Origin: Larus michahellis
Lineage: Eukaryota > Chordata > Aves > Charadriiformes > Laridae
Assembly: GCF_964199755.1 (NCBI RefSeq)
Contig: NC_133903.1
Span: 439,001 to 503,000 of the forward strand
Reading direction: 5' to 3'
DNA: 64,000 bases
The position numbers and the translations under genes were made by a program. The notes beneath the pieces were generated by a model. The model did not search any database. It was not told where the DNA came from and saw only the letters and a program-made list of their open reading frames with translations. Positions 234 to 64,000 of this stretch are shown one piece after another. Each line of letters opens with the position of its first letter. The first letter of the stretch is position 1.

Positions 234-3200
234 ATTGCCTGGGAACCAGAGCACCTTCTTCAGATGAAATTATTAAATTAGTGGAAGCAAATGTCTTTTG
301 GTCTGTTCAGGAACTGAAATGCATGGATGCAGGGACCTTTGGCAAAAATGTAGAACTTCTTGGGACCGTCTCAGGTTTTAACAGCTCCCAGCTTATTGCC
401 TTGAAGGAAAAAGCCAAGCAGGTAACTATCCTGGCTGTGAAGGAAAATTAAATCCATAATTTGATTTGCTGTTATTGAGCTATGCAGTCCTAAAATAACT
501 GTGCTACGTCAATGTCACCACTGCTGCAAGAATATCTATTGTTTATTGGAAAAATAATGTGAGATGGTGATAGAAGACTATTGCCCTTGCTTTAGAGTCA
601 ACAGGCAAGTCGTTCTGAGCTATCGGCAGCTGAAAAACTTAAGTGCTTTTACTTTTTAATTGCTTTTCAGTTGCTTGCTTCTCACTTTTCTTTCATAACT
701 GAGAAGTCAGCCAGCGTGCTATAGGTTGTTGTTTGGCCTGCTGAGAATTAAGCTCAGAGTGTTAAATTGTCTACATCAATGTTAAATATAGTTTACAGTG
801 GTGTAAAACCAGACTGACTGAAAGAGACTGTTACTAGCTGAATAAAGCTCACTCTCCCACCTTCTTGTCACAGGCAGGGACAAGCCCATCAGTGGGAAAT
901 TTTAGGGAGGGGAAAAAAAAAAAATCACACATGTCTTTACTCGGATGTTACTGGTGAGTGCAAGTTAGGGAAACACGGCAGAAAGCAGAGGCCCATCTTT
1001 GCCAAGGTGTAGCTCCGTGGAGCGGGACAGGGATGTGGTCTCGGCTCTCGTCACCGCTGGCGCCTCTTTCTTTCAGGGCAGGACGCAGCTCCTCCCGAGC
1101 TCCTCAGAGAGGGCCCTGCCGGGCTCAGCCCGCGGGTGATGTCGGCGCTGCAGCAGCGGCGCAGGAGGCCGGGAGCCTCTCCTGTGTGCGCAGTGCAGGA
1201 CCTGTGCTGGCTGCAGGTCAGCGTGCTGCGCCTGCGGCTGACCATCAGCGAGGCGTCTGGGCTCCCCGCAGCACTGCCGTGGCCACCTGTGGGCTGGGAG
1301 AGAAGTCAGACCTTGCTGATTTCTTACACCTGGGGACTGAGAGCTCTCGCGCTCTATGGAAAGTGTCCTTAAAGATCTGCCAGCTCGGTTCTGCACCCTT
1401 GTCCCGAGGGCAGTTTCCCAGGGGTTCCTATTGACTAACTTCTTGAGGAGCTGTGAGTTCACTTTCATAAAACTCGGGGTCCTGACTTTACTCTTCCCCT
1501 GGGCCGTATCCCTCAGGACTGCACATTCCACCTGGGCATGATCAGTGCAGCCCAGGCTGCCTCCAGCCTTGGTGTCACCAGCTAGCTTGCGTTGGTGACC
1601 AACAGGTCCAGTATCGCACCCCTCTGGTCGGGCTGTCTATTACCTGGCTTAAGAAGTTATCCCCGATGCACTCCAGGAGTCTCCTGGATTGCCGACAGCT
1701 CGCCGTGCTACTTCTCCGGCAGCTGTCGGGTCGGCTGAAGTCCCCCAGCAGGACGAGAGCCTGCGGGCGCGATGGCCGCTGGAGCTGGAGTAAGGAGGCT
1801 TCGTCAATAGGCTCCCCTCGATCGGGCAGCCTGTAGCCAACACCAGCCACAAGGTTCCCTGTTACCTCTGTCTAATTCTTACCCACAGGCTTTCAGCCTG
1901 CTTGCGGCTGTTCTTCAGAGACAGCTCTTCACGCTCTGTCCATTTCTTGATGTAGAGAGCAATCGCTGCCCCTCCTTCCTCGCCTGTCCCTTCCGAAGGG
2001 CCTGTAGCCATCAACGGCCGCACACAAGCCGTGGGATTCCTCCCACCAGCTTTCAGTAATGGCAGGTTTCAGTAAAACCAGGTCATAGCTTTCTAGCAGC
2101 ACGGTGGCTTCCAGCTCCTCCTGTTTGTTGCTCATGCTGTGTGCATTGGTGTAGAGGCACTTCAGCTGGGCTGTCGGCCATGTCACCTTCTCAGAGGAAC
2201 ACCCCTCGATTCCTTTGAGGTACTTCACCTCAAGTGTGTTGCCCTCTTGGCTCCTGTGACCTCAGGAGCCCCTGGCTCATCTCTGTAAGACTTGGAGTGT
2301 GCTGCAGTGTAGCCAGCACAAGCTGTGGGCCCTCGCTGACACCCCGTTCCTCTAACCTCGGCGTGTGTCCCACAGCTTGCCACGGGCAAGAGATAAGGCC
2401 ATCAGTGCGGTTTTTAGCAGTGAAGCTCAGCTTCCAAAACTCCTGAGCTGGAGCTGCTCAAAGAAAAGTGGGACCAACCAGATTTCCGAAAGCAGATGGT
2501 GACTCTGCAGCTCTGTCTCTGCAGCCTTGTTGCAGCAGGACGACAGCCCAGTGCAGCAAACACATCCTTCCCGAGACAGCGTCCCTCGCTCAGCACGGAG
2601 ACACGTGGGTAGGAAAAGGGAAAAAAATATAATCCCAGAAGAAAATAAAAACAGCGCTCATCTGAGGTAGCGGGAACTACAATATTTTACAGCAGTGCAA
2701 CATAATGGTCTGCCTACAGGGGGGTATCTGCTGCAGAGGAATTGCCAACGAGGCCAACGCACTCACATCCCAGTTACATTCAGCTCACAGATCCACAGGT
2801 CTGTAGTGCACTGAGTGAAAGAATATTCTGTCTGTGTGAGTGTTTGTCAGACGGGTTGCTGCTAGACAAAGGCAGGATTCCTATATGTTAATCTGCAGAA
2901 TGCAACATGGTGTTACACTGGGCGTGAAGCACGAGAAATCAGCACAGGCAAAGCTTTTTGAAATTATGTGCGTAAGATGCTGTTATGTTATTAACTAAAG
3001 GGCATCTTTGATGAAAGGTTTGATTAAGCCAGCTTTAATTTCTCATAAATTGATTTCCCATAAAAGGAACTGCATGGTCCCAAACTAATTCAAAAAGTCT
3101 GTTTGTCAGATTGTGTGTTACTGAAAGAAAGAAGCTGAGCTCACTTGTAAGTGGAAGGTCTCCAAGCTCTGCGATAGCGACAGCTGTACGGATCTGTGGT

Positions 3201-6200
3201 CTCTAGGTGAATGAGGACAGAGGGGTGTTTCAGCTTCATCTGTCGTGTTATTTATATCATTACAGCTGAGGTTTCATCCAACACTGTTGGATAATACTAT
3301 TTATGAAGTACTTCAAATTCTGTAGTTTATGACCTAGATCAGGAAAAAGACAGACGACATTTTTAACGGCATGTGTTTCATGTATCTCTTAAGCTAGAGA
3401 ATTAAGAGCTTTAAAATTGGGTTAATGCTTTTTACTACTTATTTTCTTTGGAAAAGATTGAAATTTCCCAGGCTTAGACCCGTTTTCTATTTCTTTATGA
3501 CATCGTAAAAGCAACATAAAAGATCTGGTGGAAACTCAGTCAGGAGGTACCGGTCCAGCAAAGCATCTCTTCACCAAATCCTTAGCCCCGAGGTCCCTCG
3601 TCGCTCCTGAGGCTGCCCTGCTGTGCAAACAGCAGAGCGTCCCCAGCTCTGCGTAAGGAGTAGCTTCTTCCAGACCTGTCCCCTTTAGAATTATAGACGT
3701 GTTAGGGTTGGAAGGGACCTTAAAGCTCATCTACTTCCAACCCCCCTGCCCTGGGCAGGAACACCTCCCGCCAGATCAGGTTGCTCAGAGCCCCGTAAGG
3801 CCCCAGCTCAGAGCCTGGCCTTACAAAATTCCAGGGATGGGGCTCCCACCACCTCTCTGGGCAACCTGTGCCAGTGTCTTACCACCCTCATGGTGAAGAA
3901 CTTCTTCCAAACGTCCAGTCTGAATTGTCCCATCTCTAGTTTTAATCCATTCCCTCTAGTCCTACCACTACCCGACATCCTAAAAAGTCCCTCCCCAGCT
4001 TTCTTGGAGGCCCCCTTAAGATACTGGTAGAACACTGTAAGGTCTCCTCAGAGCCTTCTTTTCTCCAGACTGGACAACCCCAGCTCTCTCAGTCTGTCCC
4101 CATAGGAGAGGTGCTCCAGCCCTCTGATCATCCTCGTGGCCCTTCTCTGGACACGTTCCAGCACGTCCATATCCCTCTTGTAGTAGGGGCTCTAGAAGGG
4201 GCTTTCTTTCTTTTATGCAGGTTGTACAGCTTCGTGTGTAGCTGAAGGTGCAAACACTACTTAGGAGGCCACAGCAGAGATATCCCTTCAACAAGACCTT
4301 ACTAGCTTTGACCTTCCTAATTTTTTGAACAAAAGCTAAGTTGTAGCTATGCTGAAGGTGCAATAAATATTTCCATGAATCAGACTGCATGAAAGATCAA
4401 CTTAGCCAAGGGCTGGGATTTTAGTTTTATTTTCCCATGTGGAGTTAGGAGCACAATCATGTACTAGAAAACTGTCATGTATTGACTGACATAAAGCTAA
4501 GTTGATGAAGCACATGAGATCTTTAAAGTGAGCTCTTTCTTTTTCCATTTTTAAATGTGTGCCTGTCTCGTTCAAGTCACTTCCTCCGGCCAAAACCCAG
4601 TGTCTCTTTTTCTGTAACGACAATTGGCCACATTCTGAGAAATACTGGCCACTGACTACTGTATTCTGTCATTTACAACTGAATGTAATTAACAGTTTTG
4701 GCCTCTGCAAATTCAGCTCTTGATGTACTTTCATAATTCCTTTTTCCTGAAATCAAAATTTTCTTAGGGCTGATCTGTGACAGCTTTTGAGTGACTGTAT
4801 TTATATCACAGATAAAGTTAAAAGCAGTGGATTTGTCAGTTTAAACACACTGGTACTGGTTTAGAAAAGCCCCTGCTTATTTTTTTGTTTTTACAGAGCT
4901 TTACAGATTTAACTGTATCTCTGCAAACATATTCAAATTATTATTTTTTTTTATATTGTATGCACACAAACTAGAAATCAGAACTTTAGGAATTGGCTAT
5001 TTGTCTGTATTACCCGATTCTCTACTTTGATTTCTGCTTCCCTCGCCAACGACCGAGCCAGAACGACAGGTCACCAGAGCAACTGGAAGTCCCTCCATGG
5101 AGCGGCTGCGGGAGGCGCAGAAGCCTGGCTGGTCCAGGGGCTGCTTTCGCGGTCATGCTGGAACAGTGTGGATCTCGGCACAGACTCACATTTTTATTGC
5201 TTTTAGTGGTACTCGCTCCTACAGCAGCCCTTCTAGCAGTCCCTGCTCTGACTTATCAACAAGCTCGAGCTGCGCAAATTGCAGCATTTTTAGATAAACT
5301 GGCCATTATTAGTGTAGAACCTCGAAATCTTTCACAATACCTAAGCCCTGCCTTTTGTGCGCAGAGGCATGCTTCGGGCATTGCCACTTTGAAACCAGGG
5401 GGTTTGAGAACGGTCTACGTAGAGGAAGATTCATAATGATCTCACAGACATTAATGAATTTCTTCCAAAGGTTTGGGGATCGCTGCCAGGCTGGAAGAGT
5501 TATCATATTGTGTCCCTGGGCCGCATCGCTCTGGCACTCACCGAGCAGGAAATCGAAGAGCTGGATTTGCGATCTGTGGACACCATTTCTGCACTGGGTC
5601 AGCAGAGGGAATGGACTCCTACCCAGGTAAGTGTGTTACTGAAGGTACTGCTGGTGAAAGGCGCTGGATTCAGGCCCTTTGGGACTGAGGTCCCGGACTG
5701 CCCAGGAAATGGTTACAGCAACGCACAGTGCTGCTGCTCTGGGCTGAGAGCCCAGGCAGGTTGGTGGCCACGGGCGTCTGCCTGGCTGCTGGCTCCTCGG
5801 GGAGGTGGCCAAGGGCACATCAGTTACCGTCAGTTGTGGTGGTGACTAGTGTATTCTTTAGCGCTTGCCCACCGAGTAGCGGAAAGGTCAGCAGCTCCTC
5901 TCAGGGCGGCCCCAGGACAGACCGTGCTGCCAGGGGACGTTAGCCCTTCCTCACGACCAGTAGTCACTGGAGAGGCCGTGTGCCCCCAGCACCAGCAGCC
6001 ACTGCCCTAGAAGCCTAAGTTGTTAGCAAATATGCTCCGCTCCTCTTCCTTTCCTTGATTAACGTCTAGTTATGTCGATGGGACTTTCATTATAAGAGCT
6101 AAAAGCGTACGTGCAGCTGGCAGCATATTGCTGGCTCCGTGGCCCATTCCGTGAGGGCTCCTCAGCTGCACACGTGCTGGCGTGGTGGCAGCCAGCCTTG

Positions 6201-9200
6201 GCGGGATGTCACAAATCTGTTTAATAGATTCTTGTTCTGAGGAGCACCATCAGAAGGAAGCACTCGTGAGGGTTTTGTACAATACTAGTTGGCTTTTGAT
6301 GTTCCCTGCTGTCAGTAAGAATAGATGGTTAAAAGAGATTCATCCTGCTGAGCTTCAGTGGTCTAAAAGCTGGGCAGCTAGTTTAAGCTAGTCATTAAGT
6401 CTCAGCATTGTGGATAGATTAGGAAATCTTGGAAGATGCTTGTTTCTTTCACTGACTTTGGAGGATGCCTTGGTGACAGGCTTAAGCTAGACACAGTTTT
6501 AAAATGCTTAGTTTAGGATGAGCACTGTCCTAAACAACTTAGGCTTGCAAAGGCGTTTTGGCACCAATATCCCATTTATATCCGGAAATTAATCCTAAGC
6601 ACAGGTCACCGCCTATGTATGACACTTAAATAAGACAAGATAACCTGAGTATTAGAAAAACTAAAAATTTCTTACTGATGCCCTTGAGTAACGTATGTTT
6701 TCTTCTAGCAATTAATTGACTGGGGCAGTTCTGCGAGGGGATCCCACGCCCGTTTCTTCTGGTGAAGCGTTTCCTCCTGACCTGGCAGAAGGGGCACAAA
6801 GTGCTTTCAACACTTGCCCTTGGGAAGTGTTTGTGCAGCAGTGCCCTGTCCGAGCGTCACATGTAGGTGGTGACAGTGCTCCTCCTGAAGGCCACAGCAA
6901 AACTCCAAGTAATTACATTGGGGAGGCTCAGGATTATATATGGTCCATGGCTTCTGATAAGATTTTGAGCTTCTAGTAACAAAACCTTCAATTATATTCA
7001 CGCTGTTCATGCATAATATCTTACTGCTTTTGCAGGCAAGATCTATTTTGCAAGGTTTTCTGGAAGACTCTGGCCAGACGATCAGTACGCTAAAAAGCTT
7101 TGACTTGGTTGGATTAGGAGCTATTCTTTGTGCTTTGAACTCCACAGAAATCATGTCCGTGAGGACTGCTGAATTCAGGTACTTCATTTAATACTTAATG
7201 AAATATGCATTAGTATCCCTATTGATAAAATTTATTGTGCAATTTATTTTCCTTCAAGATTTCCAGAGCCTAAAGAACATTATTTTACATTTTAAATGCT
7301 TTTAGAAAGGCAATAACTGTTACGAAAGACGTACACTAGTTGTTTAAAATACATTCTATTTTGGGTTTCCTCTGCCATTTATATCCCACCATTTCAGCAT
7401 TGCACTGAGAAACCCAGGTTTTTGCTCAAAGCATTAAGCATTTGTATGCAATTTGTGTACATGTATTTCAAACTGAAAATGGGTTTACAGCAGACTAGGT
7501 GTATTCCCGGCATATTTAGTATTGCAGGTAGTTGCAGCACGTAACGTTAACCTCGTTGCCCTTCGCAGCGCTGCGGTTGCAAGAGTTGGCCTGTTGTTTT
7601 GTAGCAGCCCTGTTCTGCGGCATTTTAAGAAGATGGCAGAGTCTGTGTTCGGAACTGCTGCCGGCTGGAACGGCTCTGTTTTACAGGAAATCGGTACTAT
7701 AGCAGGTAACAAAACTCAGACTCCAGGTGGTGATGGTTCTGAAGCACTGTTATTAAGCGTTAAAGACAGGTTCGCATAGCAGTGCCTTTTTCTAGACTGG
7801 CAAAAGACGTGTCTTACAGAGAGGAGTCACCTGCAGGGATGGACACGCAGCACTTTCGTTAGCACTAAGGAAAAGTCGTGGTGTTCTCTGTAAGGATCTC
7901 TGAACGTGCTCAAGCCGACCGCGGGGAGCGCAGCCTGCAGTCATTCGGGTCCTGTAAGGTGGGAAGGGTAAATCAAGGAGGGCACGACCACCCCGTGTTT
8001 CAGCCCCCGCCGCGACAGGAGCGAGCTGCTGGGCCGGGGCAGCCGGCGGCTGAGGGAGCGTCGTGAGCGGCTGCCCAGGGAGCGCGAGGGCGGCCAGCCT
8101 GGAGCGGTGCCTCTCCAGAGCACTCCCACAGCCACCGAGGCTTCCTCGGACAGAGGTCACACGGCTTTGTTCAGGGAATTTTCCCCTCGATTGATTAACT
8201 GCACGTTGAGCGCTCATAAATTTTAGCATCCCCGATGCCTGGGGCTTCCACGCAATGGGATGATTCCAGGCTGTGAGTCCCTAATGGGTGAGGAACAACT
8301 CCCGTTGCACGCTCGTGCTTCCTAGTCTGGCCGCAGAAGAGGCTGTGAACAAGCATTCCCTGAAAACACCGCTTATGATTTCACTGATTTTATAATTTTC
8401 TCTTTTCCGAGATAAAGTGACTCCAGTAGAGTACATTCCATACCAATGGTTAAAGTCAGATGATTTGTAATGTTGGAATACAATGAAAGAAGCAAATCAA
8501 AAAAAGAACCGGTATCTTTCTCCACAACATCCTGGAGTAAACCATTTATTAGATATTTTGTATAAATGCTTAATTTTATTAGCCTAAAAATAAATCTAAC
8601 AAAAAGAATATTAATGAAGTTTTGTTCCTATTGGTTTTTTTCACTTTTTTTAGGTGGTTTGAATGAGGATGAACTGAAAGCTCTTGATAAAAACTTGATG
8701 CCATATTTCCAGCCAATAGCAGTAAGATGTATACCTCCTGAAATTTTCCAAGTAAGAGCTCAATTACTGAAGAAGTAACCAAACTTCTATCATTTTTACT
8801 CTAGTATAAATAAAACGTAGCACTGATTTATAGCTTGGGTTTGGGTTTCAACAAGAATTTTTCTACGGTGTGTTAAGTGAGAGGCAGTCAAGGATTGGAA
8901 ACATTAACTTTCAGCTGTACCATCTGTATTTCGATGCCCGTAAAATATGCTAGACAAGCTTTATTTATGCTTCAGAATGCGTCCCAAGGAAAAAGCAAAG
9001 ATCTAGGGTCAGAAATCAGGGGATGGACTCCCTCTTTCTTCCGACACTGTATTCAGATTTGAGGGGTTTTTTTTCTCTGTTTATTAACATTTGCAAGGAT
9101 GCTATCATAGCTACAAATTTCTCTGCTGACTATATAGGAGCTTTTTTATTATCCTAAAATCTGACAACATTCTCCTGAGCTGGCTCTGAAAAACAGATTG

Positions 9201-12200
9201 TACAGGCAGATACAGATCACAAAGGAATTACATCTACTTACAGCCTCTCTGAACGTGGACCAGAAATTAGAACATGGGTCTTGAGATCATTGCCCCAGAC
9301 TTCAGGTGACTTGGTGACAAGATTAATGTTCTGCCGAGGCTGGTGGCTTTCGGATGCTCGGCAAGCAATGAAGTTGTGGACGGATGAGCTAAACGGATAG
9401 TTAACGGTGTCAGCTTCCATAAAAGAGAAAAACTCCTTGAACGCGACTGTTCTGCCCAGTACCGCTGACAGTTTATATAAGCTTGAAACGTCCTTAGTGA
9501 AACTATTTCTTTGAAAAACAGGCAAAACTGAAGATGTATGGCATCTTGTAGAATTTCTTTCAAATAGCATACGTTCTGTTAGTAAGAGTAGTAATGATAC
9601 TACAAAATGTGCTTAACGAGTAACAGGGGACCTTCTCAAAAAGTTTTCTGTATTTTAAAGATTCAGAGCAGGTTTTGGTGTTACCCAGGTTCTGTGTAAC
9701 TTCATTTTGCAGCTGTATACCTTATTCAGATTTTTATTTATGAAAAATTACATTGTATTATGGACTTTAGTTGAGTTAAGAAGAGACTCGATTAAAAAAT
9801 TTCTGGACCTGTAGGCATTTACATGAGTTTACTCAGTTTAAAAGAGAACACTGTTTGGCAGACAATGAAAAATCAGGAAGGGTTTGTTCCACTGCCTGAC
9901 CTACAGGGAATTTAGTTGTGAAGTAGAATCTGGACGGAGAATTGTTGCAGCAAAGAAGGCTTGTTGTGTAGGGGGGCTGGCGTTCTTGTGACTGCAGAAT
10001 GTTCACGAGAATCAAAGCAATCCAGCGTGCCCAATACGTGCAGGCTCTACAGACTGGTTAATTGCTATGTGATGTAAGATAATTACTGTAAGATTATGAT
10101 TGCCAGGTTTCATTTTTAAACACAAGTTTTAACGTAACCAAACTTGGAAGATTTTTGATCTAAAAGAGAAAATTGAATAATGAGATTAAAGCATGGGGTT
10201 TTTTTTCATCTCTTTGCTCTGCCGCTAACTCTAATTAAAGGTCAAACATAGGTTCAAGTGAGGTTGCTTGGGAGCAGATGTAAGAGGAAATAAATGAAAA
10301 CACAAGAGGATGCACACTGTCATCAGTCTTTGAACAGATCAGAAAAACGTGGCTGGAGAATTAAACTCCAGCAGTTTACTGAGGAAGCGTCCAACACAGC
10401 GGTGGCACAGAAGGCTGCTCAAGCTTCCTGTCAGACCCCAGCAGCAAAGAGCCGGGAGAGGGATGGATGAGTGGTCAGTGAAGTAAAAGAATGCAGAGGA
10501 TTTCTGTTACGCTCTATTGAACTCTCGTGTAGCAACACAATGTTGAAGGCTACTTCCCCTCGTTCCAAACGCAAGATAGTGTGACTTCTGATTCCTTACC
10601 TGCCTTATTTAATTGAGAGCCGAAACCAATTTTTCTGGCTTTTATTCCTCCCAGGCACTGTCCCCAGAGCAAATAGCAAACCTGGGCCCTGAAAACGCCG
10701 CTGCAGTTACCAGATCACAGCGTGAGCATCTGAATGGGCCGCAGCTCCAGAGCCTTCAGCTGGCGCTGGATGGAGCCCAGAGCAGCGCCCCGGAGACAGA
10801 GAAGGACGACGGCATGCCCCAGGTGGGGCAGACCCCGGCCCCCGGTGGTGAGTGCAGCTCTGCCCCACGCACACCCCCGGGGACAGACCCCGTCCCCCAG
10901 CGGTGAGTGCAGCTCTGCCCCACGCACACCCCCGGGGACAGACCCCGTCCCCCAGCGGTGAGTGCAGCTCTGCCCCACGCACACCCCCGGGGACAGACCC
11001 CAGCCCCAAGCGGTGAGTGCAGCTCTGCCCCACACACACCCCCGGGGACAGACCCCGTCCCCCAGCGGTGAGTGCAGCTCTGCCCCACGCACACCCCCGG
11101 GGACAGACCCCGTCCCCCAGCGGTGAGTGCAGCTCTGCCCCACGCACACCCCCGGGGACAGACCCCGTCCCCTGGCGGTGAGTGCAGCTCTGCCCCACGC
11201 ACACCCCCGGGGACAGACCCCGTCCCCCGGCGGTGAGTGCAGCTCTGCCCCACGCACACCCCTGGGCGAGTGCAGACCCGCAGCACCACCAGGACCAGAC
11301 CTGGGTTTTGAAGGGGGAGGTGCAGTTGGTTTTCTAACTAGCTTTTTAACTCATGCCTCAAATCACATGCCAGACCACGACAAACAGCAAGGGTGTTGTT
11401 GGATTTACCCACAGCAAGAGGTAACAGAGGAAGATTGTCAGATGGCATTAGCAGCTATACGCTGCTGTAGCATTACACCATGCTAAGCGCTAGCTTGTGT
11501 AAACTGTGGCCTGAAACAGTGAGCTTTTCCCTCTCCTTCTTTGCCATATTCATTGCCTAAATTTAAGGCAGGATTCTCCATCTCTGGACCTTCAGATCAC
11601 AACCTTTACCTGCAGCAGAACCTTGTTTGCAGAGCTGCAAGTGAGAAAGGAGTGGGTTAGCATCTTTATCCAGACTGTAGAAACCCCTTGAACTGTTTTT
11701 CCTGCTGTTCCCACCCTGTTTGGAATTAAACCCTATTAGTGCCTATGCGTCAGTGGTTTAACATCTTACTTCTGCATATTGCAGTCTATGCTGGGCAAGT
11801 CATGCTGGCAGGTGCGTTAGTGGCCGTTCTACGAGTGAGATTTTGCATGTAGTCAAGCCAACGTTGAGAACTTATCCCTGTTGGACAGCAAATATTGTTG
11901 CTTCCAGTGACACCAGTGAGACATAAGCTGTTGAAGAAGAGAGAGGGATGTCGAGGTGCTAAAATAGGAGAAAGGAGGACTAAATTGCTGTGATGCCGGT
12001 GCTGTAATCAGAGCAGAGCTGCCCAGCAGCAGCTGAGCGGTGCTCGCGGCCCGGCTGCCTGGCGCGGGGGACCTGTTCCCTCGGCAGATGTGCCAACGGG
12101 AGGAGTTTCCTGGGTAAAGATCAGCTGAGCTCTTGAGCTTCTCATTTATTATTCCTCTCTGTAGTGAGCACCACCCCTACGAAATGCTTCTGTTCGCAGC

Positions 12201-12441
12201 TGTGTGTGTAACCTGGAAGGGACCATTCTGACCAGTGTCGTCTTTTCTGCAGCTGAATGTAATTAAGAGTCAAATGCTGGGAGTTGCTGCACCTCTTTGG
12301 GTTGGTGTAGATAAGACTGTACTAGACCTGAACTGTATTGTGACACTAAGACTTAATGATTTCTGCTTTTCAGGTGCTCCTTGTTTGAGTGGCTTCAGCA
12401 TCTGGTTGTGTGCTGCACTTACGCTGCACCTGCCTTTCTGA
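234..12441 (+). CDS. MSLN: Mesothelin-like GPI-anchored protein, 3' part (partial at 5' end)
   Basis: Seven coding exons can be joined: 234-421, 5471-5626, 7036-7178, 7569-7705, 8654-8751, 10655-10847 and 12374-12441 (TGA at 12439-12441). All have AG acceptors and GT donors, and every junction keeps the frame, giving about 326 visible codons. The gene begins upstream of the window. Recognisable family features are [11 protein letters not shown] and LKEKAKQ in the first exon, running into VWGSLPGW and a LDLRSVDTI repeat in the second; IPPEIFQ followed by [18 protein letters not shown]; and a final exon that is a short hydrophobic tail ([19 protein letters not shown]) directly before the stop, as expected of a GPI-attachment signal. 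Mesothelin, otoancorin and stereocilin share a helical-repeat architecture and act at the cell surface or in apical extracellular matrix. Mesothelin is GPI-linked, and the LDGAQ...GAPCL end resembles its C-terminus. Otoancorin or a mesothelin-like paralogue is the main alternative. The family call is firm; the exact orthologue is less so. Confidence 0.78.
1280..2430 (-). mobile_element. CR1 LINE fragment, endonuclease half of ORF2
   Basis: Reading the minus strand from about 2430 down to 1280, translated pieces match avian CR1 ORF2 from its start. An ORF1/ORF2 junction-like stretch is followed by [20 protein letters not shown], then [35 protein letters not shown], a [16 protein letters not shown] block, [12 protein letters not shown], and a region containing [11 protein letters not shown]. 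The frame is broken several times (for example between the pieces ending near 1929, 1649 and 1575), so it is a dead copy. Unusually for CR1, the 5' half is kept and the reverse-transcriptase half with the 3' tail is missing. The exact ends are by eye. Family identity is firm. Confidence 0.88.
3686..4192 (-). mobile_element. CR1 LINE 3' fragment
   Basis: The plus strand begins with the reverse complement of the CR1 3' end (TTAGGGTTGGAAGGGACCTT and the CCCCCCTGCCCTGGGCAGGA block). On the minus strand, 3808-4035 encodes the terminal part of the CR1 reverse transcriptase, with [17 protein letters not shown] and [19 protein letters not shown]. Upstream ORF2 sequence extends to about 4192. This is the usual 5'-truncated CR1 form, with frame damage. 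It lies in the large intron of the mesothelin-like gene. Confidence 0.93.
5157..5436 (+). other. Unassigned intronic open frame with hydrophobic leader-like segment
   Basis: An open frame from the ATG at about 5155 to the TAA at 5434-5436 begins [13 protein letters not shown], followed by about 20 hydrophobic residues ([19 protein letters not shown]). It continues with a mixed-charge stretch ([20 protein letters not shown], then [14 protein letters not shown]). The same frame is open upstream to about 4993. A splice-acceptor-like TTTTATTGCTTTTAG ends at 5206. It lies only 35 bp before a mesothelin-like exon but is in a different frame and stops before it. I do not recognise the product. It could be an alternative exon, an old mobile-element or viral remnant, or chance. 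Confidence 0.3.
10821..11267 (+). repeat. 55-bp minisatellite spanning an exon/intron boundary
   Basis: Tandem units of exactly 55 bp run from the last ~25 coding bases of exon 10655-10847 into the following intron. Each unit contains CGGTGAGTGCAGCTCTGCCC, and GTGAGT recurs at 10848, 10903, 10958, 11013, 11068, 11123, 11178 and 11233. The units are nearly identical, with substitutions such as CAGCCCCAAG in unit 4 and CCTGGCGG in unit 7. All three minus-strand frames are open through the array simply because 55 is not a multiple of 3 and the unit lacks stops. Those open frames are not genes. Confidence 0.97.
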
Positions 12442-13545
12442 GCCCACGACTGTTAGGCTTGAGGTAAGTTATATTTTCAATAAGAGGTAGCTTTATAACA
12501 GAAACATAGTTCACCTGTAACAGCGAACACCACAGGGGGAAGGACTGCGGGACCCCCTTCCTGCTTTGAATACAGAGAGAATAATTGCTGAATAATTTTT
12601 CTGTATTACAAAGGTGTCTTGTACTTCTATTAGACTAGCTTAGAATCTACTCAAGGGGAAACAACTTTATCTTATCTTTACCGTAAAGCCAACCTTAACG
12701 AAAGTATATTTAAAATTCCATGTAACACCAATCCATTACTGCATTGTTATTTGTAACATGTTGTTAGTATTAATCTGTATTTTGCCTGTTACAGTCTATT
12801 GATTAGATTTTATTCCACAACTGCTTTGATAATCTCCAGTTAAAAGAATGTTGCCATTAACTTTAACTGGATTTTAGCATTTTGACAGGCTAAAATTTAA
12901 CGAGAGCATTGGTGGGCTTAAGGTATGAATTCCAATTAAGCAAACTAAGTGCTTAAGTGTTCTTAGTGTTTAAGACTAAGTGCAAATCAACGTATGTCAA
13001 AAGACTTAGTATTTTTCTTCGCTTTCTGATTTTCAGTGTCCCGTAGCTTACAGAGGAGACGCTAGAGATAAAGAGCCGCAGCTCAGCGTGAGCAGTAGAA
13101 TCAAGAGGCTCCGAGATGCCTGAGTGCAAAGTGGTTAATTTCTTAACACCTTCGTCTGCCATCATGATGTGAAGTATCCCTTTTCCCTACCTTTACCATT
13201 AACAAGTTACACAGGATCCCTCCAAATACTTCAGACAAACTTCAGAACTGGAAATGGCTTATTTATCTCATAAGAAAACCACTGGAAGATACACTTACGT
13301 GCTAGGGAGGAGCCTGAACGACCCAAGGGACACGTGGCAGGCGACTGTGACTTGGAGGCTGATGCATTGTACACACCCAGTGCTTTTTACATTGGCCGAT
13401 TTGTTCTCCCTGTGGTATCCATCTGTTGGGGTTTCTTCTTGTTTTCTGAGTGTACGTTCCTCCGGACAGAGGCGATCCTTCTGCGTGACGTAGTAGAAAC
13501 CGTACTAAAAGTTACTGCTCTTGCAATAAAATAACTTCATCTCCG
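12442..13545 (+). other. Probable 3' UTR of the mesothelin-like gene, likely with an intron
   Basis: A strong donor, GAG|GTAAGTT, starts at 12464, only 22 bases after the stop codon. A good acceptor with a pyrimidine-rich lead (CTTTCTGATTTTCAG) ends at 13036. A canonical AATAAA lies at 13525-13530. The simplest model is a spliced 3' UTR with a last exon of about 13037-13545. A donor this close to the stop would not normally trigger nonsense-mediated decay. This is inferred from signals only. Confidence 0.45.
13525..13530 (+). terminator. Candidate poly(A) signal, mesothelin-like gene
   Basis: AATAAA about 1.1 kb after the stop codon; it is the only canonical signal I found between the stop codon and the gene-poor stretch that follows. 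Confidence 0.45.
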
Positions 13546-29500: not shown

Positions 29501-32500
29501 CTCATCTGTAAAATAAAGATATTTGCCTATTCAACAGGGAATAGCTATGAAGTCTACCATAACAATTAAAAATGCTAACTTTAGACACAACTGAAATTGA
29601 AACTGAATTCTGGTTCAGTGCTCCTAGCAGTCTGTTAGTTTTGCAGGTTTTATGGCGGTTGGCTGGTGAAGAACACTGGCCAATTGCCACTCTTCAGATT
29701 TTAGAGATGTTTAAAGGTCTAAATCAAATCATCTAATTTGTGATATGTTAAATGGCTGAGTCTGAATGGGGCTTATTGAGTAAATTTTTAATTGCCACAT
29801 GAGACACACCACTCCCAGGCTTTTTGCATGTAAAGAGACCCCTGCCATCATTATTGCACGTATGCACGTGCACATTTTCAACATCAGTGTTCTGGGCCAG
29901 TGCTTCCCTTGCAGTAGCAGAAGGGGTATTCCTTCTGCAGTCAGTTCCTTAGTTCTGTCTGCTCAGGAAACGGTCTGTAAGGAAACTTTGACTTCAACCA
30001 GAGGCAAGGTGATGGTTTTAAAGCAGCAAAGCCACTAGAGCCCAGAGTCATTGGTTTTGAGTTATTACTCTGCTGAGAAAAGTTAAATACCACCACATAG
30101 CCTGGAACTGCAAATGCAGGTAAACAAACAATACAAACAACCAAAAAAGACAGCACTTAGTGCCTGGGAATATCCTTGTTCAGCGACTTTGGTCTAATCC
30201 TGCAACCTCTGTGCGTTGTTCTGTTTTTTGTTTCTTCTTTCCTTGCTCTTTAGCTTATCTACATTGCTTGCTCGTATGCCACTGTGTATCTGATCTACAT
30301 GAAATTTAAGGCCACCTATGATGGAAACCATGATACGTTCAGAGTGGAGTTTCTGATAGTTCCTGTTGGTGGACTCTCGTTTCTTGTCAATCATGACTTC
30401 TCTCCTCTGGAGGTGAGTTGAGGATGGGCAGGAGGTTATACTTTTTTCTCTAAAATTATTTAGAACATGAAGATGAGCATTTTTAGGCTGATTGAGGAAC
30501 GCTTGAAAGATGCCTGTGTCTAGTAGGTTCTGGCTTAATGCATCTTTACAGTGTGGATTTCTGTGAAAATTTAAGGCACTTAGGAGACTAGCATTAGCAT
30601 CAACACTGGTTATTTTAGAAATGGGAAGGCTTTATCTTTTTCCCCAGTGTACTCTGATGGTTATATTAATTCAGAAGTATCCTTCCTTATGTTATCTTTG
30701 TTAAAGAAATGCCCCAGAATGCGGTTTGTGAATAGTTGGTGCCACCTGTTGAAAACAAAAGGAACTATACTACTTCTTAAATTTTGTAGAATAGCAAATG
30801 GTCTAGAGTATTAGAAAGAATTGCATTGTATTTGAAATGCAGCTATGTGTTTTCCTAACAGGAAAATTATATTAAAAATGTAATTATAGAGTTCAAACTC
30901 TGTATTTCCCCATGAAATAATGAATAGCTTTAGATGCTTATCTGAAGTGGATTGAACTGCATTTTTATATTCATTGGCATTAAATTATTTTATTAGAGAC
31001 TAAAGGAGTTTTAGCTCCAACACTTTGAGACATTATTTTAAATTTTGTTCTGTATTAACTCATTCTTTAAAACCAATAGATTTAAAAAGTTGGAAGAATG
31101 TGGCGGGAAGAAGGACTTCCATCTTCCCTGCAGCTTTTCACAGCACCAGCTCTGTAAACTGCATGTCGTGGTACTGTGAATCCTGAATTGATGGATGCGC
31201 ATAAGTTTCCTCATGAATAAACCTACGCCTGCCAGCTCACTGGACAGCTGGTGTGGAGAGTCTGTTGTCTGCCAAGAGAGTTGTTCCCTCCTACCGTCCC
31301 GTGGTTGATTATGAAGCTTTCACTTAGTTTTTACTGTACCAAGAATGGTTTGCCAAAATACTGTACTTATTCATAACATTGTTAGAAAGTGAAAAGTCAA
31401 GCCAAGTCAAATATCCTCTTCGCTTCTTATCAGTAAGACAGTTGAATATATTTGTGGGGTTTTTTTCCTTTCAGATACTGTGGACCTTCTCCATCTATCT
31501 CGAGTCGGTTGCTATTCTCCCTCAACTTTTTATGATCAGCAAAACTGGGGAAGCAGAGACCATCACTACTCACTATCTTTTCTTCTTGGGTCTGTACCGT
31601 GCCTTGTACTTAGTCAACTGGATTTGGCGCTACTATTTTGAGGGATTTTTCGACCTCATAGCCGTTGTTGCTGGTGTGGTCCAGACCGTTCTTTACTGTG
31701 ACTTCTTCTATTTGTATGTTACAAAAGGTAAGCAGTGCAATAACTTTCAGCTTCAGGTTCTGGAATGTAGCAGTTAACACGTTCGTAGGCATCTGCTGTA
31801 TCGACATTACTAGGTTGTAAATGCTGCGTGCAAATTATTGCTGAAATCTCCTTGATAGATTTATCAAGTAGACTTTCTGCTAGTGTGGGGCGTTTCTGAG
31901 GATTGTTCTGATTGTGGGTAGAATATAAATGTGTAAATGGTCTGATGAACTTAATTGATAAATTTAAAATAAGTATGGCTAAATACGTGTTGCTGTTATC
32001 TTCCATAACTAAGCATGATCCTCGTGCTTCTCCTGACAACATACACTGTTTTGTGCAGATTCCATGCTTACAGACACCTTTCTCAGTGATTTAAATACCT
32101 TAAGAGTCCAAAGGATTTTGGATGTTTCTGTTTATGCTAAGCGTAGAAGCAGTTATTTCTGCTTGGTGCATTAGCAATACTGCCCTTGTTCACATTCCAG
32201 CTTCCATCATATCACTACAAAGCTATATGGGGGTGTGTTGTTCTAGTATTAACTCTTAAGAAACCAGGGTCATAGGCTAGTATTTCCTGAGGATGAAAAG
32301 TGAGAATTCCAGGGTGCCACGAGAGGGCAGGGTTGGAATAGTTGTTAATTCATCATAGTTTTACCAGTATGTATTGGAGAGAGAGGCAGGCTTGGAAGGA
32401 CTGTCTGCAGAGCACCCAGTGACTCTCTGTGACAGGTTTTGGTCCCTTTGAAGTTTTAACAGCATGTGCTTCTCGTAGGTCACGTCTGTTCTGCTAACTG

Positions 32501-43400: not shown

Positions 43401-46400
43401 GCAACGCGCCTTTATGATCAGCATTGAAATTACTGTCATCCGTAGCAAGTAGGTCTGAAAGGCTGAAGAACCGACTGCTAATGCTGCTGCTGTTGCCACA
43501 TATTTGTATTTTTATAGAATGATAATGATAGTCATAAGACTACAGTGTGCCTCTCCTTAGTGTATCTAAAGGGTGTCTTTTTTTTTTTCTTAAGCAAATC
43601 ACTTGCAGATTACACTAAGCACTTCATTGTTTCAGTCATCCTTGGAAAGGACCTCGTTGCAAGGTGAGATGGAAATGTTTTTACATTGTTCTTTCAAAGG
43701 TGCTTAGATTGCGGAGAATAGGAGGCTTTTATTTACTTTGTTCTGTGTGTGTTTAAACAGGTTAAGTATGCCCAACATGGAGGATTTAAAGAGGAGAATA
43801 GTGAGAATCGTGGCAAACTGCAACAAACCCAAGGTAAGGGCATGCAGTTCCTGGGTAAAAGCCAGTGGGCCCCTCAGCTGGGTTAAGCCCCAGCTTTAAC
43901 CAGGTGACAAAGGCGGGGGGGGGTTGATCTTAATGGAGACAGTTACAGTTGTGTTTTGGAACAAAAGTGTTTGGTTTTAATTCAGCAACGCTTATGTTAG
44001 TCTCTTACGGTATAAAGCTGTCTTGTTGGAAATTAAGATTCAACAAGACCTGGAAGATACCCGTGCTCAGCATGCAGGACCTTTCTCAGCTACTTTTGCT
44101 GAGAAAGAAAAGAAAGGGAAAAAAACCCAAAACCGAAAATGGTGAAAAATCAGTGAGATGTCTTACTTTAATAACCATGTAGTATCACTAAGTAAACAAG
44201 TTAGTGGTTTTATTTAAATTTTACCTTCAGAATTTATTTGGAAAGCAAATATTTCTCTGTTATGGTGTTAATTGCTCACCTTTTCCTTTTCTTGTTTGTG
44301 AGAAACAGTTTTGAAAGTGCTGGATCCAGGGTGGTGTCAGGCAAGATGATACTGGAGGTGTAGAGGAGTGTCTTAAAGATTCAAAACTGCTGTTTCTCAA
44401 CATCTAAAGTTAAATCTGCTGTACTCGCCCAGCATGAGGAGTCATGGAGAAGGCCTGGGTGACGTAGTAAATGCAGAGTCGGATAATGGAGAGTTAGAAG
44501 TTACAGGTGCAAGAAGACTTAAACCTGCAGAACAAAATCATAGAATCGTTATGGTTGGAAGAGACATTAAAGATCATCAAGTCCAACCATTAGCTCGGCA
44601 CTGCCAAGCCCACCTCTAAACCATGTCCCCCACAGCTGCCCCATCCCTGGAGGGGTTCAAGGCCAGGCTGGACGGGGCTCTGAGCAGCCTGGGCTGGTGG
44701 GAGGTGTCCCTGCCCAGGGCAGGGGGTGGAACTAGATGATCTTTAAGGTCCTTTCCAACCCAAACCGTTGTATGATTCTATGCCAAACCTCAACTCAGCT
44801 GTTTCTCTTTCTGAATTCAGTACCGGATTTTGCTGCGTGGATGTTGGTATGAAGTGTTTGGGGGAGATCCAGAGAACTTCCCCACTGAGCTGGATGGTAG
44901 AAGCCAAGATGCACTCACCCAACCGCTCCTGGCTGAGGAGAGTTTAATGGTTCATCGGTCACCTTCATACAGTGCCCTTGAGGATGAATCGCACTTACAT
45001 TCACCACCTCAGTATCCTCATCTGTATCTTCCTGGAAAGATTATCCACATTGTAGAAGAATCCAGCTCTAGGAGGTAAGTAGAGTAATGAATACCACTGT
45101 CTTGTTTTCCTAAAATCTACTCAGAGCTGCTTCTCGCTTTCAAAGTAGGTATTTCCAGCTCTGCTTCTCATCTGCATCTCCGACGCCCGTCTTCGGTTAT
45201 TGCGCATTAGCCAGCTTTTCCGTTTATTCTGTGCCTCCCTGCTGCTTTGCTGTTCCACTGAAAGCCCTGGAAAGTGTTTCTCTTTACGCCCCCCTGTTGC
45301 GCGTGCTCAGGGGATGATGTTAAGCAGTGACTGCTGCGTTCAGCCTTGGCGTGCTGCAGTTCCTGCCCGAGACTGCAGGTCGTGCAGTCTTACGTCCCGC
45401 TAGTGGTGACGTGATAACAAAGTACCTGGCCACTGAGTCGTCACGTGAATATTGGTGATGAGGAGCAGGCAGAATATTGCCCATCACAGCGGCCCAGCCA
45501 GGCTGGGTACCAGTTGCCGCAGTAAGCAGTGTGCCCATGCAGCCTCCCGTTTCCCGTCCTTTGCTGCTGTTTTGTGGATGCAGGAAAGTGAGACAAAGAC
45601 AATGGAAAAGCTGAAAGTGCTGGGAGGGTGAGGATTGTGGTTTTGTTGGGTCAGTGTTGGGTTTAGGGTGGGGTTTTTTGTTTGTGTGTTGTTGATGTTG
45701 GGTTTTTTTGACAAAACAACCTGAAATGGACCACAGCCTAGACAGTACTCAATATCCTCCCTTGTTTGCTTCTGAAGCAGAAATAAGAGCATCTGTAACT
45801 TGCACAAGACCATCTTACAGAAGAAAAAAAATAATCTGTAACTTACAGAAGAGGGAAGAAAAGGCCTGGAGAAGAAATCCACTTCTTTTCCTCCCATTCA
45901 GTAGATTAGTATTTTACTTAAGCTTCACATCTTTAATGTTTAACAATTTAAATACTGGTTTTACGAGTTAGATACTTTTAACACCTGTGACCTGGCGGGT
46001 TTTCTCAGTGGCTCCTGTTCTACGTAATTGAGTTCATTTAGAATCATAGAATCATAGAATTGCTGAGGTTGGAAGGGACCTTTAAGATCATCGAGTCCAA
46101 CCTTTAACCTACACTGACAAAAGCCACTTCTAAACCTCGTCCCTAAGTGCCCCATCTACCCTTTTTTTAAACACCTCCAGGGATGTTCCAATGTTTAATA
46201 ACCCTTTCAGTGAAGAAATGTTTCCTAATATCTAATCTAAACCTCTCCTGACGTAACTTGAACCCGTTTCCCCTCGTCCTATCACTTGTCACCAGGGAGA
46301 AGAGGTCAGCCCCCATCTCTCTACAACCTCCTTTCAGGTAGTTGTAGAGGGTGATGAGGTCTCCCCTCAGCCTCCTCTTCTCCAGGCTAAACAACCCCAG

Positions 46401-47498
46401 CTCCCTCAGTCGTTCTTCATAAGGTTTGTCCTCCAGGCCCCTCACCAGCTTTGTAGCCCTTCTCTGGACACGCTCCAACACCTCAATGTCCCTCTTGTAG
46501 CGAGGGGCCCAAAACTGAACGCAGTACTCGAGGTGGGGCCTCACCAGTGCCGAGTACAGGGGGATGATCACTTCCCTAGTCCGGCTCACCACACTGTTCC
46601 TGATACAGGCTAGGATGCTGTTGGCCTTCTTGGCCACCTGGGCACACTGCTGGCTCATATTCAGCCGGCTGTCAACCAACACTCCCAAGTCCTTTTCTGT
46701 CGAGCTGCTTTCAAGCCATTCTGCCCCAATCCTGTAGCGCTGCATGGGGTTGTTGTGTCCCAAGTGCAAGACCCGGCATTTGGCCTTGTTGAACCTCATA
46801 CCATTGGTCTCAGCCCATTTCTCTTCCTTCATTTACTCCACAGCACAGCAGTTAATCATAGGGGTTTTTTTTTCTTACTTGTACTAGCGCATGAGAGCCA
46901 CCATCACGTACCATTCTGTAAAATAAAATCCTAAATACATCATGTGTGCAGCATTAAATCTAGTGTCTAGTCTCCTACTGGTACCACTGTGACATAGGGG
47001 CTAAATTTGACACTAACGGTGCGAATGGGCAGCGCTTGACCCTCATCCCCCCTTTGCTCAGCCTGCATTCCGTCTCTTTGAGCAGGATTATTTGATGGCT
47101 TCTGTCACTGTTAAGGCGCAGGAGGGTTTGGGGCAGTTCTGCCACCGGGGGCAGGGAAAGGCGGCGTTCCCAGCTGTGTCCTGAAGGTCGGAACTGCTGC
47201 TCTTTGGGAGGTTCCAGCTCCAGGTTCTCTGGTCCAGCCTTGGCCTCGGGCACCAGTTCTGCAGTCTCAGCCCTTGTATTTGTGGTGTCTTTTTTGTTTT
47301 TTTAGGTTGTGCTCTTCAGATAGTAAATATACGGCAAGATGGTCAAACGAAGCAGTCTTCAGCAGCATTTTAATAAGTCCCAAGATGATAACAGACCACA
47401 TGCCAGATGTTGTGCTCAAAGCTCTGAACAGTTTGTCTCAGGAACACGGATCGTGTATTTCTTGTCAAACACGAGAATGTAACACCAACGTAGTCTAA
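33993..47498 (+). CDS. DAGLB: Diacylglycerol lipase beta
   Basis: Fifteen coding exons: 33993-34087, 34492-34643, 36785-36959, 37726-37987, 39131-39256, 40252-40379, 41299-41425, 41792-41875, 42323-42400, 42805-42885, 42979-43106, 43595-43663, 43761-43833, 44821-45074 and 47306-47498. All are GT-AG with matching phases: 2025 nt, 674 aa (human 672). The enzyme hydrolyses sn-1 of diacylglycerol to make 2-arachidonoylglycerol at membranes. The N-terminus ([17 protein letters not shown]) leads into four transmembrane segments in exons 1-4, roughly residues 20-155. The lipase domain carries GHSLGGG with nucleophile Ser446 and the acid Asp498 in [12 protein letters not shown], matching human Ser443 and Asp495 with a constant offset of 3. 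The cysteine-rich LLCCCI segment in exon 4 and the tail with LTQPLL and KMITDHMPD are also family features. No damage is seen. CR1 copies lie in introns 3, 13 and 14. Confidence 0.98.
37497..37597 (-). mobile_element. Short CR1 3'-end fragment
   Basis: The plus strand shows the reverse complement of the CR1 3' end: AGAATGGTTCGGGTTGGAAG, then GACCTTAAAGATCATCTAG and the CCCTGGGCAGGGACACCTCC block. About 100 bp, severely 5'-truncated, in DAGLB intron 3. Confidence 0.93.
40599..40639 (+). repeat. Two-copy ~20-bp tandem duplication
   Basis: AGAAATAAAAGTGTATGAAC occurs twice in direct succession in DAGLB intron 6. It is a small local duplication with no obvious function. Confidence 0.85.
44536..44640 (-). 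mobile_element. CR1 3'-end fragment (left arm of an inverted pair)
   Basis: Begins with the reverse-complemented tail (ATCATAGAATCG), followed by GGTTGGAAGAGACATTAAAG and ATCATCAAGTCCAACC. It then carries a GCACTGCCAAGCCCACC section ending near CCCCCACAGCTGCC. It abuts a CR1 copy in the other orientation. In DAGLB intron 13. Confidence 0.9.
44641..44782 (+). mobile_element. CR1 3'-end fragment (right arm of an inverted pair)
   Basis: Sense-orientation CR1 end: CCATCCCTGGAGGGGTTCAA, GGCCAGGCTGGACGGGGCTC, the GCCCAGGGCAGGGGGTGG block and the tail GTATGATTCTATG. It ends only 38 bp before DAGLB exon 14 (44821). Confidence 0.93.
46040..46836 (-). mobile_element. CR1 LINE 3' portion with long uninterrupted reverse-transcriptase C-terminus
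   Basis: The plus strand starts with two ATCATAGA tail repeats (reverse-complemented). On the minus strand, 46167-46832 is one open frame of 221 codons covering the C-terminal reverse-transcriptase/thumb part of CR1 ORF2, with [77 protein letters not shown] and [20 protein letters not shown]. The frame is lost near HWNIPGG close to the 3' end. It is 5'-truncated and therefore immobile, but less decayed than the other copies here. In DAGLB intron 14. Confidence 0.95.

Positions 47499-50555: not shown

Positions 50556-64000
<13,445 letters not shown>

What the first reader, a model, noticed from the sequence alone, without database searches (positions are those of the whole stretch)
10821..11267. 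Tandem array of eight consensus 5' splice sites
A 55-bp minisatellite has amplified the actual exon/intron boundary of the penultimate coding intron of the mesothelin-like gene. Every unit carries GTGAGT, at eight positions spaced exactly 55 bp from 10848. The first donor gives the conserved frame into the GPI-signal exon. The second (10903) adds 55 nt, shifts the frame and would replace the hydrophobic GPI tail with a different, non-membrane C-terminus. Donors from the third onward read through an in-frame TGA at 10904-10906 and would truncate before the GPI signal. So donor choice could switch the protein between GPI-anchored and secreted forms, and copy number could vary between individuals.
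Basis: partly seen in the sequence, partly recalled or inferred. Interest (0 to 1): 0.72.

Follow-up and report, generated by a model that had tools for sequence, protein, structure and literature searches.

The report
Minisatellite copying a splice donor
In a mesothelin-like gene of what is probably a bird, a short repeat has copied the end of an exon and its splice signal eight times; this kind of repeat is known from lancelets and human genes, and whether the extra signals are ever used is not shown here.

Summary
The array is real: 55 bp x 8.1 copies at 10825-11266, with GTGAGT in all eight units from 10848 to 11233. It sits on the donor of a coding exon (10655-10847) of a Mesothelin-family gene (Pfam E 6.1e-11), within an open six-exon frame ending in a hydrophobic tail. 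The kind is known: boundary-spanning tandem repeats are called 'mirages' in lancelets, where normal splicing is reported to continue, and human genes have them too. Most likely donor 1 makes the working mRNA and the copies are by-products of minisatellite turnover. The proposed anchored/secreted switch is untested, and two of its steps need correction: the donor-2 tail is still fairly hydrophobic (best 19-residue mean 1.36 against 1.54), and donors 3-8 put the stop 54-329 nt before the junction, so decay is as likely as secretion. Intact donors are no sign of selection (P 0.38). In favour of the switch: human mesothelin has a soluble isoform with an 82-bp insert ascribed to its intron 16/17, which I take to be this intron's counterpart.

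The parts
10825..11266 (+). 55-bp minisatellite, 8.1 copies, spanning the exon/intron boundary
   Evidence: TRF; unit table
10655..10847 (+). penultimate coding exon, 193 nt, enters in phase 0, ends in phase 1; its last 23 nt belong to repeat unit 1
10848..10853 (+). donor 1 (GTG|GTGAGT), the one in frame with the tail exon
10903..10908 (+). donor 2 (GCG|GTGAGT): +55 nt, frame shift
10958..11238 (+). donors 3-8 at 10958, 11013, 11068, 11123, 11178, 11233; products stop at the TGA at 10904-10906
10904..10906 (+). in-frame TGA met by donors 3-8 and by intron retention
12374..12463 (+). last coding exon: TGA at 12439-12441, then a strong GTAAGT at 12464 (possible 3' UTR intron)
8654..8751 (+). 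upstream coding exon (model), phase-compatible with 10655
7569..7705 (+). upstream coding exon (model)
7036..7178 (+). upstream coding exon (model)
5448..5626 (+). upstream coding exon (model; its acceptor is weak)
234..421 (+). further upstream coding exon (model; link to 5448 not resolved)

Best explanation
The array is a 'mirage': a minisatellite whose unit holds the last ~23-25 nt of a coding exon, its donor, and ~30 nt of intron. It grew by slippage or unequal exchange after a duplication of the boundary of a Mesothelin-family gene (shown: position, unit, homogeneity; inferred: how it grew). Splicing of working mRNA most likely uses donor 1, the only one that keeps the frame into the hydrophobic, probably GPI-signal exon (inferred from frame and from how lancelet mirages behave). 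The other seven donors are bystanders; when used they give a frame-shifted tail (donor 2) or an early stop with probable decay (donors 3-8). The array is tolerated rather than selected.
For: Array and donors. Unit 1 differs from the consensus at 6 of 55 positions while units 2, 3, 5 and 6 are identical and units 2-8 differ at only 7 of 385, i.e. recent homogenisation that spares the first copy; exclusion of cluster boundaries from homogenisation is described for a lancelet mirage (PMC3087553, passages). GGTGAGT is unchanged in 49 of 49 positions of units 2-8, but the chance of that is 0.38. Open six-exon frame through donor 1; Mesothelin family by Pfam. Donors score alike in the recalled matrix, 5.47 for donor 1 and 5.26 for each of the others, and alike in predicted pairing, mean unpaired 0.27-0.33. 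The array RNA is not unusually folded, z -0.42. [quoted passage not shown] Matches to three GGTGAGT at 20-50 nt gaps are no more numerous in this genome than for the reversed word, 70 against 81 (overlapping matches, lower bounds).
Against: No RNA data at all, so use of donor 1 is inferred. When donors compete, factors can favour the intron-proximal one (SRSF1) or the intron-distal one (hnRNP A1) (PMC5585400, passages); older work that I recall favours the intron-proximal one for equal sites, which here would be donor 8. All eight donors are predicted to be mostly paired: chance that 8 nt are open 0.0006 for donor 1, at most 0.0002 for the others, regional median 0.008. Exon-side parts of units 2-8 vary more than intron-side parts, 6 of 175 against 1 of 210, p 0.05, which a purely neutral account does not predict, though the test is weak. 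The far edge copy, unit 8, differs at only 1 position, so the edge effect shows at one end only.
Confidence: 0.68

Rival explanations
1. Donor choice is a regulated switch between an anchored and a secreted mesothelin-like protein, and copy number tunes it.
For: Donors 3-8 and intron retention all end at the same TGA before the tail. [quoted passage not shown] I take that intron to be the counterpart of this one from its place before the tail exon. In human duplicated genes, tandem repeats at exon-intron boundaries can generate alternative splicing (PMC2812944, abstract and passages).
Against: No sign of selection on the copies. Donor 2 does not clearly remove hydrophobicity, 1.36 against 1.54 over 19 residues. 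Stops 109-329 nt (donors 4-8) or 54 nt (donor 3) before the junction predict decay (the 50-55 nt rule is recalled).
Confidence: 0.12
2. The copies act as a sink: donors 3-8 are used often and their mRNAs are degraded, so longer arrays lower the amount of protein.
For: Near-equal donor scores and pairing; stop placement; a strong GTAAGT at 12464 after the stop would add another junction if used.
Against: Lancelet mirages are reported to leave splicing normal. No RNA tested here.
Confidence: 0.17
3. The exon model is wrong and the array is an ordinary intronic or non-coding minisatellite that happens to carry GTGAGT.
For: Matches to clustered GGTGAGT occur at 18 places in this genome by my grouping of the 70 matches, and are not enriched over the control.
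Against: The exon, its phases and its family fit on both sides. In the partial check I made of the 17 other places, no Pfam-supported exon ending at a copied donor was found.
Confidence: 0.03

Closest known systems
Lancelet 'mirage' minisatellites (Adh3, globins BflGb6 and BflGb9, TnC; similar repeats in PGBD5)
   Same: [quoted passage not shown] cluster boundaries spared from homogenisation; splicing reported normal (PMC3087553, PMC3902484, passages)
   Different: Here in a vertebrate, with an intact donor in eight of eight copies at exact 55-bp spacing; length variation not tested
Variable internal tandem repeats at exon-intron boundaries of human genes in segmental duplications
   Same: Minisatellites (on average 30-bp units repeated 4 times) that at boundaries can change splicing (PMC2812944, abstract and passages)
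   Different: Those are in primate-specific duplicated genes and include new introns; no transcript evidence here
Human mesothelin soluble isoform (82-bp insert, intron 16/17)
   Same: Intron before the membrane-binding C-terminus; its abnormal splicing removes that end (PMC7485315, passage)
   Different: An insert in human, several candidate donors here; homology of the two introns is my inference
Tandem-repeat-filled introns of GC-rich avian genes (leptin, TNF-alpha, MRPL52)
   Same: GC-rich tandem repeats with G4-type motifs in introns (PMC6792250, passages); here 7 non-overlapping G4-type motifs on the minus strand, 0 on the plus
   Different: Not described as copies of a splice donor in the passages I saw

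Membership tests
Mirage minisatellite | tandem repeat unit spans an exon-intron boundary | tested here: met
   on the modelled exon:
Mirage minisatellite | copies carry splice signals | tested here: met
   8 of 8 units
Mirage minisatellite | internal copies homogenised, edge copies more diverged | tested here: inconclusive
   unit 1 at 6 of 55 and units 2, 3, 5 and 6 at 0, but the other edge, unit 8, at 1 and inner units 4 and 7 at 4 and 2: met at one edge only
Mirage minisatellite | length differs between haplotypes | not testable with these tools
   one assembly only
Mirage minisatellite | regular splicing kept | not testable with these tools
   no RNA data
Mesothelin family (PF06060) | profile match above curated cut-off | tested here: met
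   41.7 bits against 25.8 for a 441-aa hand-joined model with gaps; the last six exons alone give 18.5 bits, below cut-off
Mesothelin family (PF06060) | C-terminal GPI signal | tested here: inconclusive
   hydrophobic C-terminus, best 19-residue mean 1.54; no GPI predictor was run
Regulated alternative 5' splice sites | two or more donors used in mRNA | not testable with these tools
   no RNA data

The most novel reading that the evidence does not exclude
The array is a copy-number-tunable splice switch: the number of donor copies sets how much of this mesothelin-like protein is anchored, secreted or lost by decay, so that individuals with different array lengths differ in surface mesothelin, through minisatellite variation at an intron whose likely human counterpart also gives a soluble form.
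Probability: 0.08. Interest if true: 0.72.

Novelty: new member of a known kind. Interest (0 to 1): 0.4.

Why it matters
Eight near-identical donors in a row, at equal spacing, form a natural test of how the splicing machinery chooses between equal sites; copy number, if it varies, would make it a graded test. It also extends boundary-spanning minisatellites, described in lancelets and in human duplicated genes, to a probable bird gene, and a second, acceptor-side case was seen in the same genome. If donors other than the first are used, it would bear on how mesothelin-type proteins are released from cells.

Tried and rejected
Array as coding repeat: rejected; period 55 is not a multiple of 3, and GGTGAGT closes each plus-strand frame within three units (54-residue open frames); all three minus-strand frames are open through the array, which I take as a composition effect. 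Alternative donor at 10823 (CAG|GTGGGG): it leads to a stop after VLLV and drops the tail. Acceptors or mini-introns inside the array: its AG sites score from -7.2 to 0.1, against 0.7 to 4.7 for the six model acceptors. Special RNA structure: z -0.42. Rfam: no match at gathering scores in the window. PDB: a chain named HeliScrew4 (E 2.8e-07, 2.4e-07) and ribosomal L3 chains at E 0.083 or worse; no mesothelin structure was matched. Genome-wide comparison: one pattern only (GGTGAGT three times, 20-50 nt apart); the 17 other places were fetched and scripted, but the script took the first donor of the densest cluster, not always the true start of the array, and for 9 of the 17 no open exon was found. 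Of the 8 with one, I scanned chosen peptides of L044 (3), L052 (2), L053, L055 and L056 (1 each, not every frame listed); for L057 I scanned only the opposite-strand exon; L054 and L058 were not scanned. Searches for paralogues, for AGGTAAGT arrays and for longer spacings were sent but did not complete.

Full report
What is there. Tandem Repeats Finder gives one array at 10825-11266, period 55, 8.1 copies, 95% matches. Each of the eight units holds GTGAGT, at 10848 and every 55 bp to 11233.

The gene. The window is G000:C12:439001-503000 of a 1.405-Gb assembly with no name. I modelled exons 5448-5626, 7036-7178, 7569-7705, 8654-8751, 10655-10847 and 12374-12441 (the script took one base more, to 12442). 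They have GT/AG borders and matching phases, and join into a 271-residue open frame. Pfam gives Mesothelin at E 0.00065, 18.5 bits, below the 25.8 cut-off, for these six exons, and E 6.1e-11, 41.7 bits, when three further upstream exon peptides are put in front; how those upstream exons join is not resolved. The neighbours carry a KDEL-receptor-type domain (ORF at 31328-31774, E 2.9e-25) and a Ras-family domain that I read as RAC1 (ORF at 50784-51101, E 1.7e-05).

Frames. Donor 1 closes a 193-nt exon in phase 1, and the tail exon then reads [22 protein letters not shown] and stops at 12439-12441. The tail resembles the human mesothelin C-terminus as I recall it. Donor 2 adds 55 nt and reads a different tail that, without further splicing, stops at 12465-12467; its best 19-residue hydropathy mean is 1.36 against 1.54 for the normal tail, and its best 15-residue mean 1.55 against 1.83. 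Donors 3-8 and intron retention stop at TGA 10904-10906, which lies 54, 109, 164, 219, 274 and 329 nt before the respective junctions. By the 50-55 nt rule (recalled), donor 3 is borderline and donors 4-8 should be decay targets. A strong GTAAGT at 12464 (score 7.6) lies 22 nt after the normal stop codon; if it is used, a further junction follows and the donor-2 frame would run on into another exon.

Is anything selected? Against the consensus of the eight units, unit 1 differs at 6 of 55 positions, unit 4 at 4, unit 7 at 2, unit 8 at 1, and units 2, 3, 5 and 6 at none. In units 2-8 together 7 of 385 positions differ, none of them in the 49 positions of GGTGAGT, and the chance of that is 0.38. 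So the intact donors are what near-identical copies would show anyway. The exon-side part varies more than the intron-side part, 6 of 175 against 1 of 210, Fisher p 0.05, which is too weak to build on. The predicted RNA fold of 10800-11320 is no more stable than shuffles, z -0.42. The eight donors are alike in mean predicted pairing (0.27-0.33 unpaired); all are predicted to be mostly closed, the chance of 8 open nt being 0.0006 for donor 1 and at most 0.0002 for the others, against a regional median of 0.008.

How special is it? In the same genome, GGTGAGT three times at 20-50 nt gaps is matched 70 times (41 forward, 29 reverse); the reversed word is matched 81 times (75 and 6). These are overlapping matches and the tool calls such counts lower bounds; the number of control places was not shown. 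I grouped the 70 by hand into 18 places, this one included. The 17 others were fetched and scripted. For 8 of the 17 an open stretch from an acceptor-like AG to the chosen donor exists, but none of the eight peptides scanned for this purpose, from L044 (3), L052 (2), L053, L055 and L056, has a Pfam match. L054 and L058 were not scanned, and for L057 I scanned the opposite strand instead. There, at C37:35323-35765, a 51-52-bp repeat runs into the start of an exon with a CUB domain (E 1.5e-11): a boundary-spanning repeat on the acceptor side. So this assembly has at least two such structures, and the window's is the only donor-side one that I could support.

What is known. Lancelet genes carry 'mirages', minisatellite-like tandem duplications of exon-intron boundaries; they vary in length, cluster boundaries escape homogenisation in the case studied, and they are reported not to disturb normal splicing (PMC3087553, abstract and passages; PMC3902484, passage; the original Adh paper, PMC117041, is not held). 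Human duplicated genes also have variable minisatellites at exon-intron boundaries, where they can generate alternative splicing (PMC2812944, abstract and passages). Introns of some GC-rich avian genes consist largely of tandem repeats (PMC6792250, passages). [quoted passage not shown] I did not find an avian donor mirage or a mesothelin-family one in print in the ten answered searches. Searches were aimed at other questions, one search listed only 20 of 519 papers, and the library holds only openly licensed papers.

Which donor wins? Competing donors can be shifted either way by known factors: SRSF1 towards the intron-proximal and hnRNP A1 towards the intron-distal (PMC5585400, passages). In a reporter with two competing donors, 26 of 31 intronic elements placed between them suppressed the intron-proximal one (PMC1877881, passages); whether this array contains such elements was not tested. 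The frame, and the lancelet precedent, make donor 1 the best guess. Against it, older work that I recall favours the intron-proximal site among equals.

Verdict. A real and tidy example of a known kind; the switch is a fair hypothesis with no direct evidence, and two of its steps need correction. Interest 0.4, mainly as a natural test of donor choice.

Noticed in passing
L057, C37:35323-35765 of the same genome: A 51-52-bp repeat, 8.6 copies, runs into the start of a CUB-domain exon (Pfam E 1.5e-11): an acceptor-side boundary repeat.
   Followed up: partly
window 12464: Strong donor-like GAG|GTAAGT 22 nt after the stop codon; a possible 3' UTR intron.
   Followed up: no
window 10801-11300, minus strand: Seven non-overlapping G4-type motifs on the minus strand of the array, none on the plus strand.
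   Followed up: no
window 46170-46832, minus strand: A 221-codon open frame that looks to my eye like a CR1-type element; a Pfam scan of its first 150 residues gave nothing.
   Followed up: partly
L052, C23:4939800-4943000 of the same genome: A GGTGAGT array lies near what looks to my eye like an opioid-receptor first exon; no Pfam match for the two peptides scanned.
   Followed up: no
window 11268-11279: The right flank of the array (GAGTGCAGACCC) joins two short words, GAGTGCAG and CAGACCC, that each occur once in every unit; a possible trace of how the first duplication arose.
   Followed up: no
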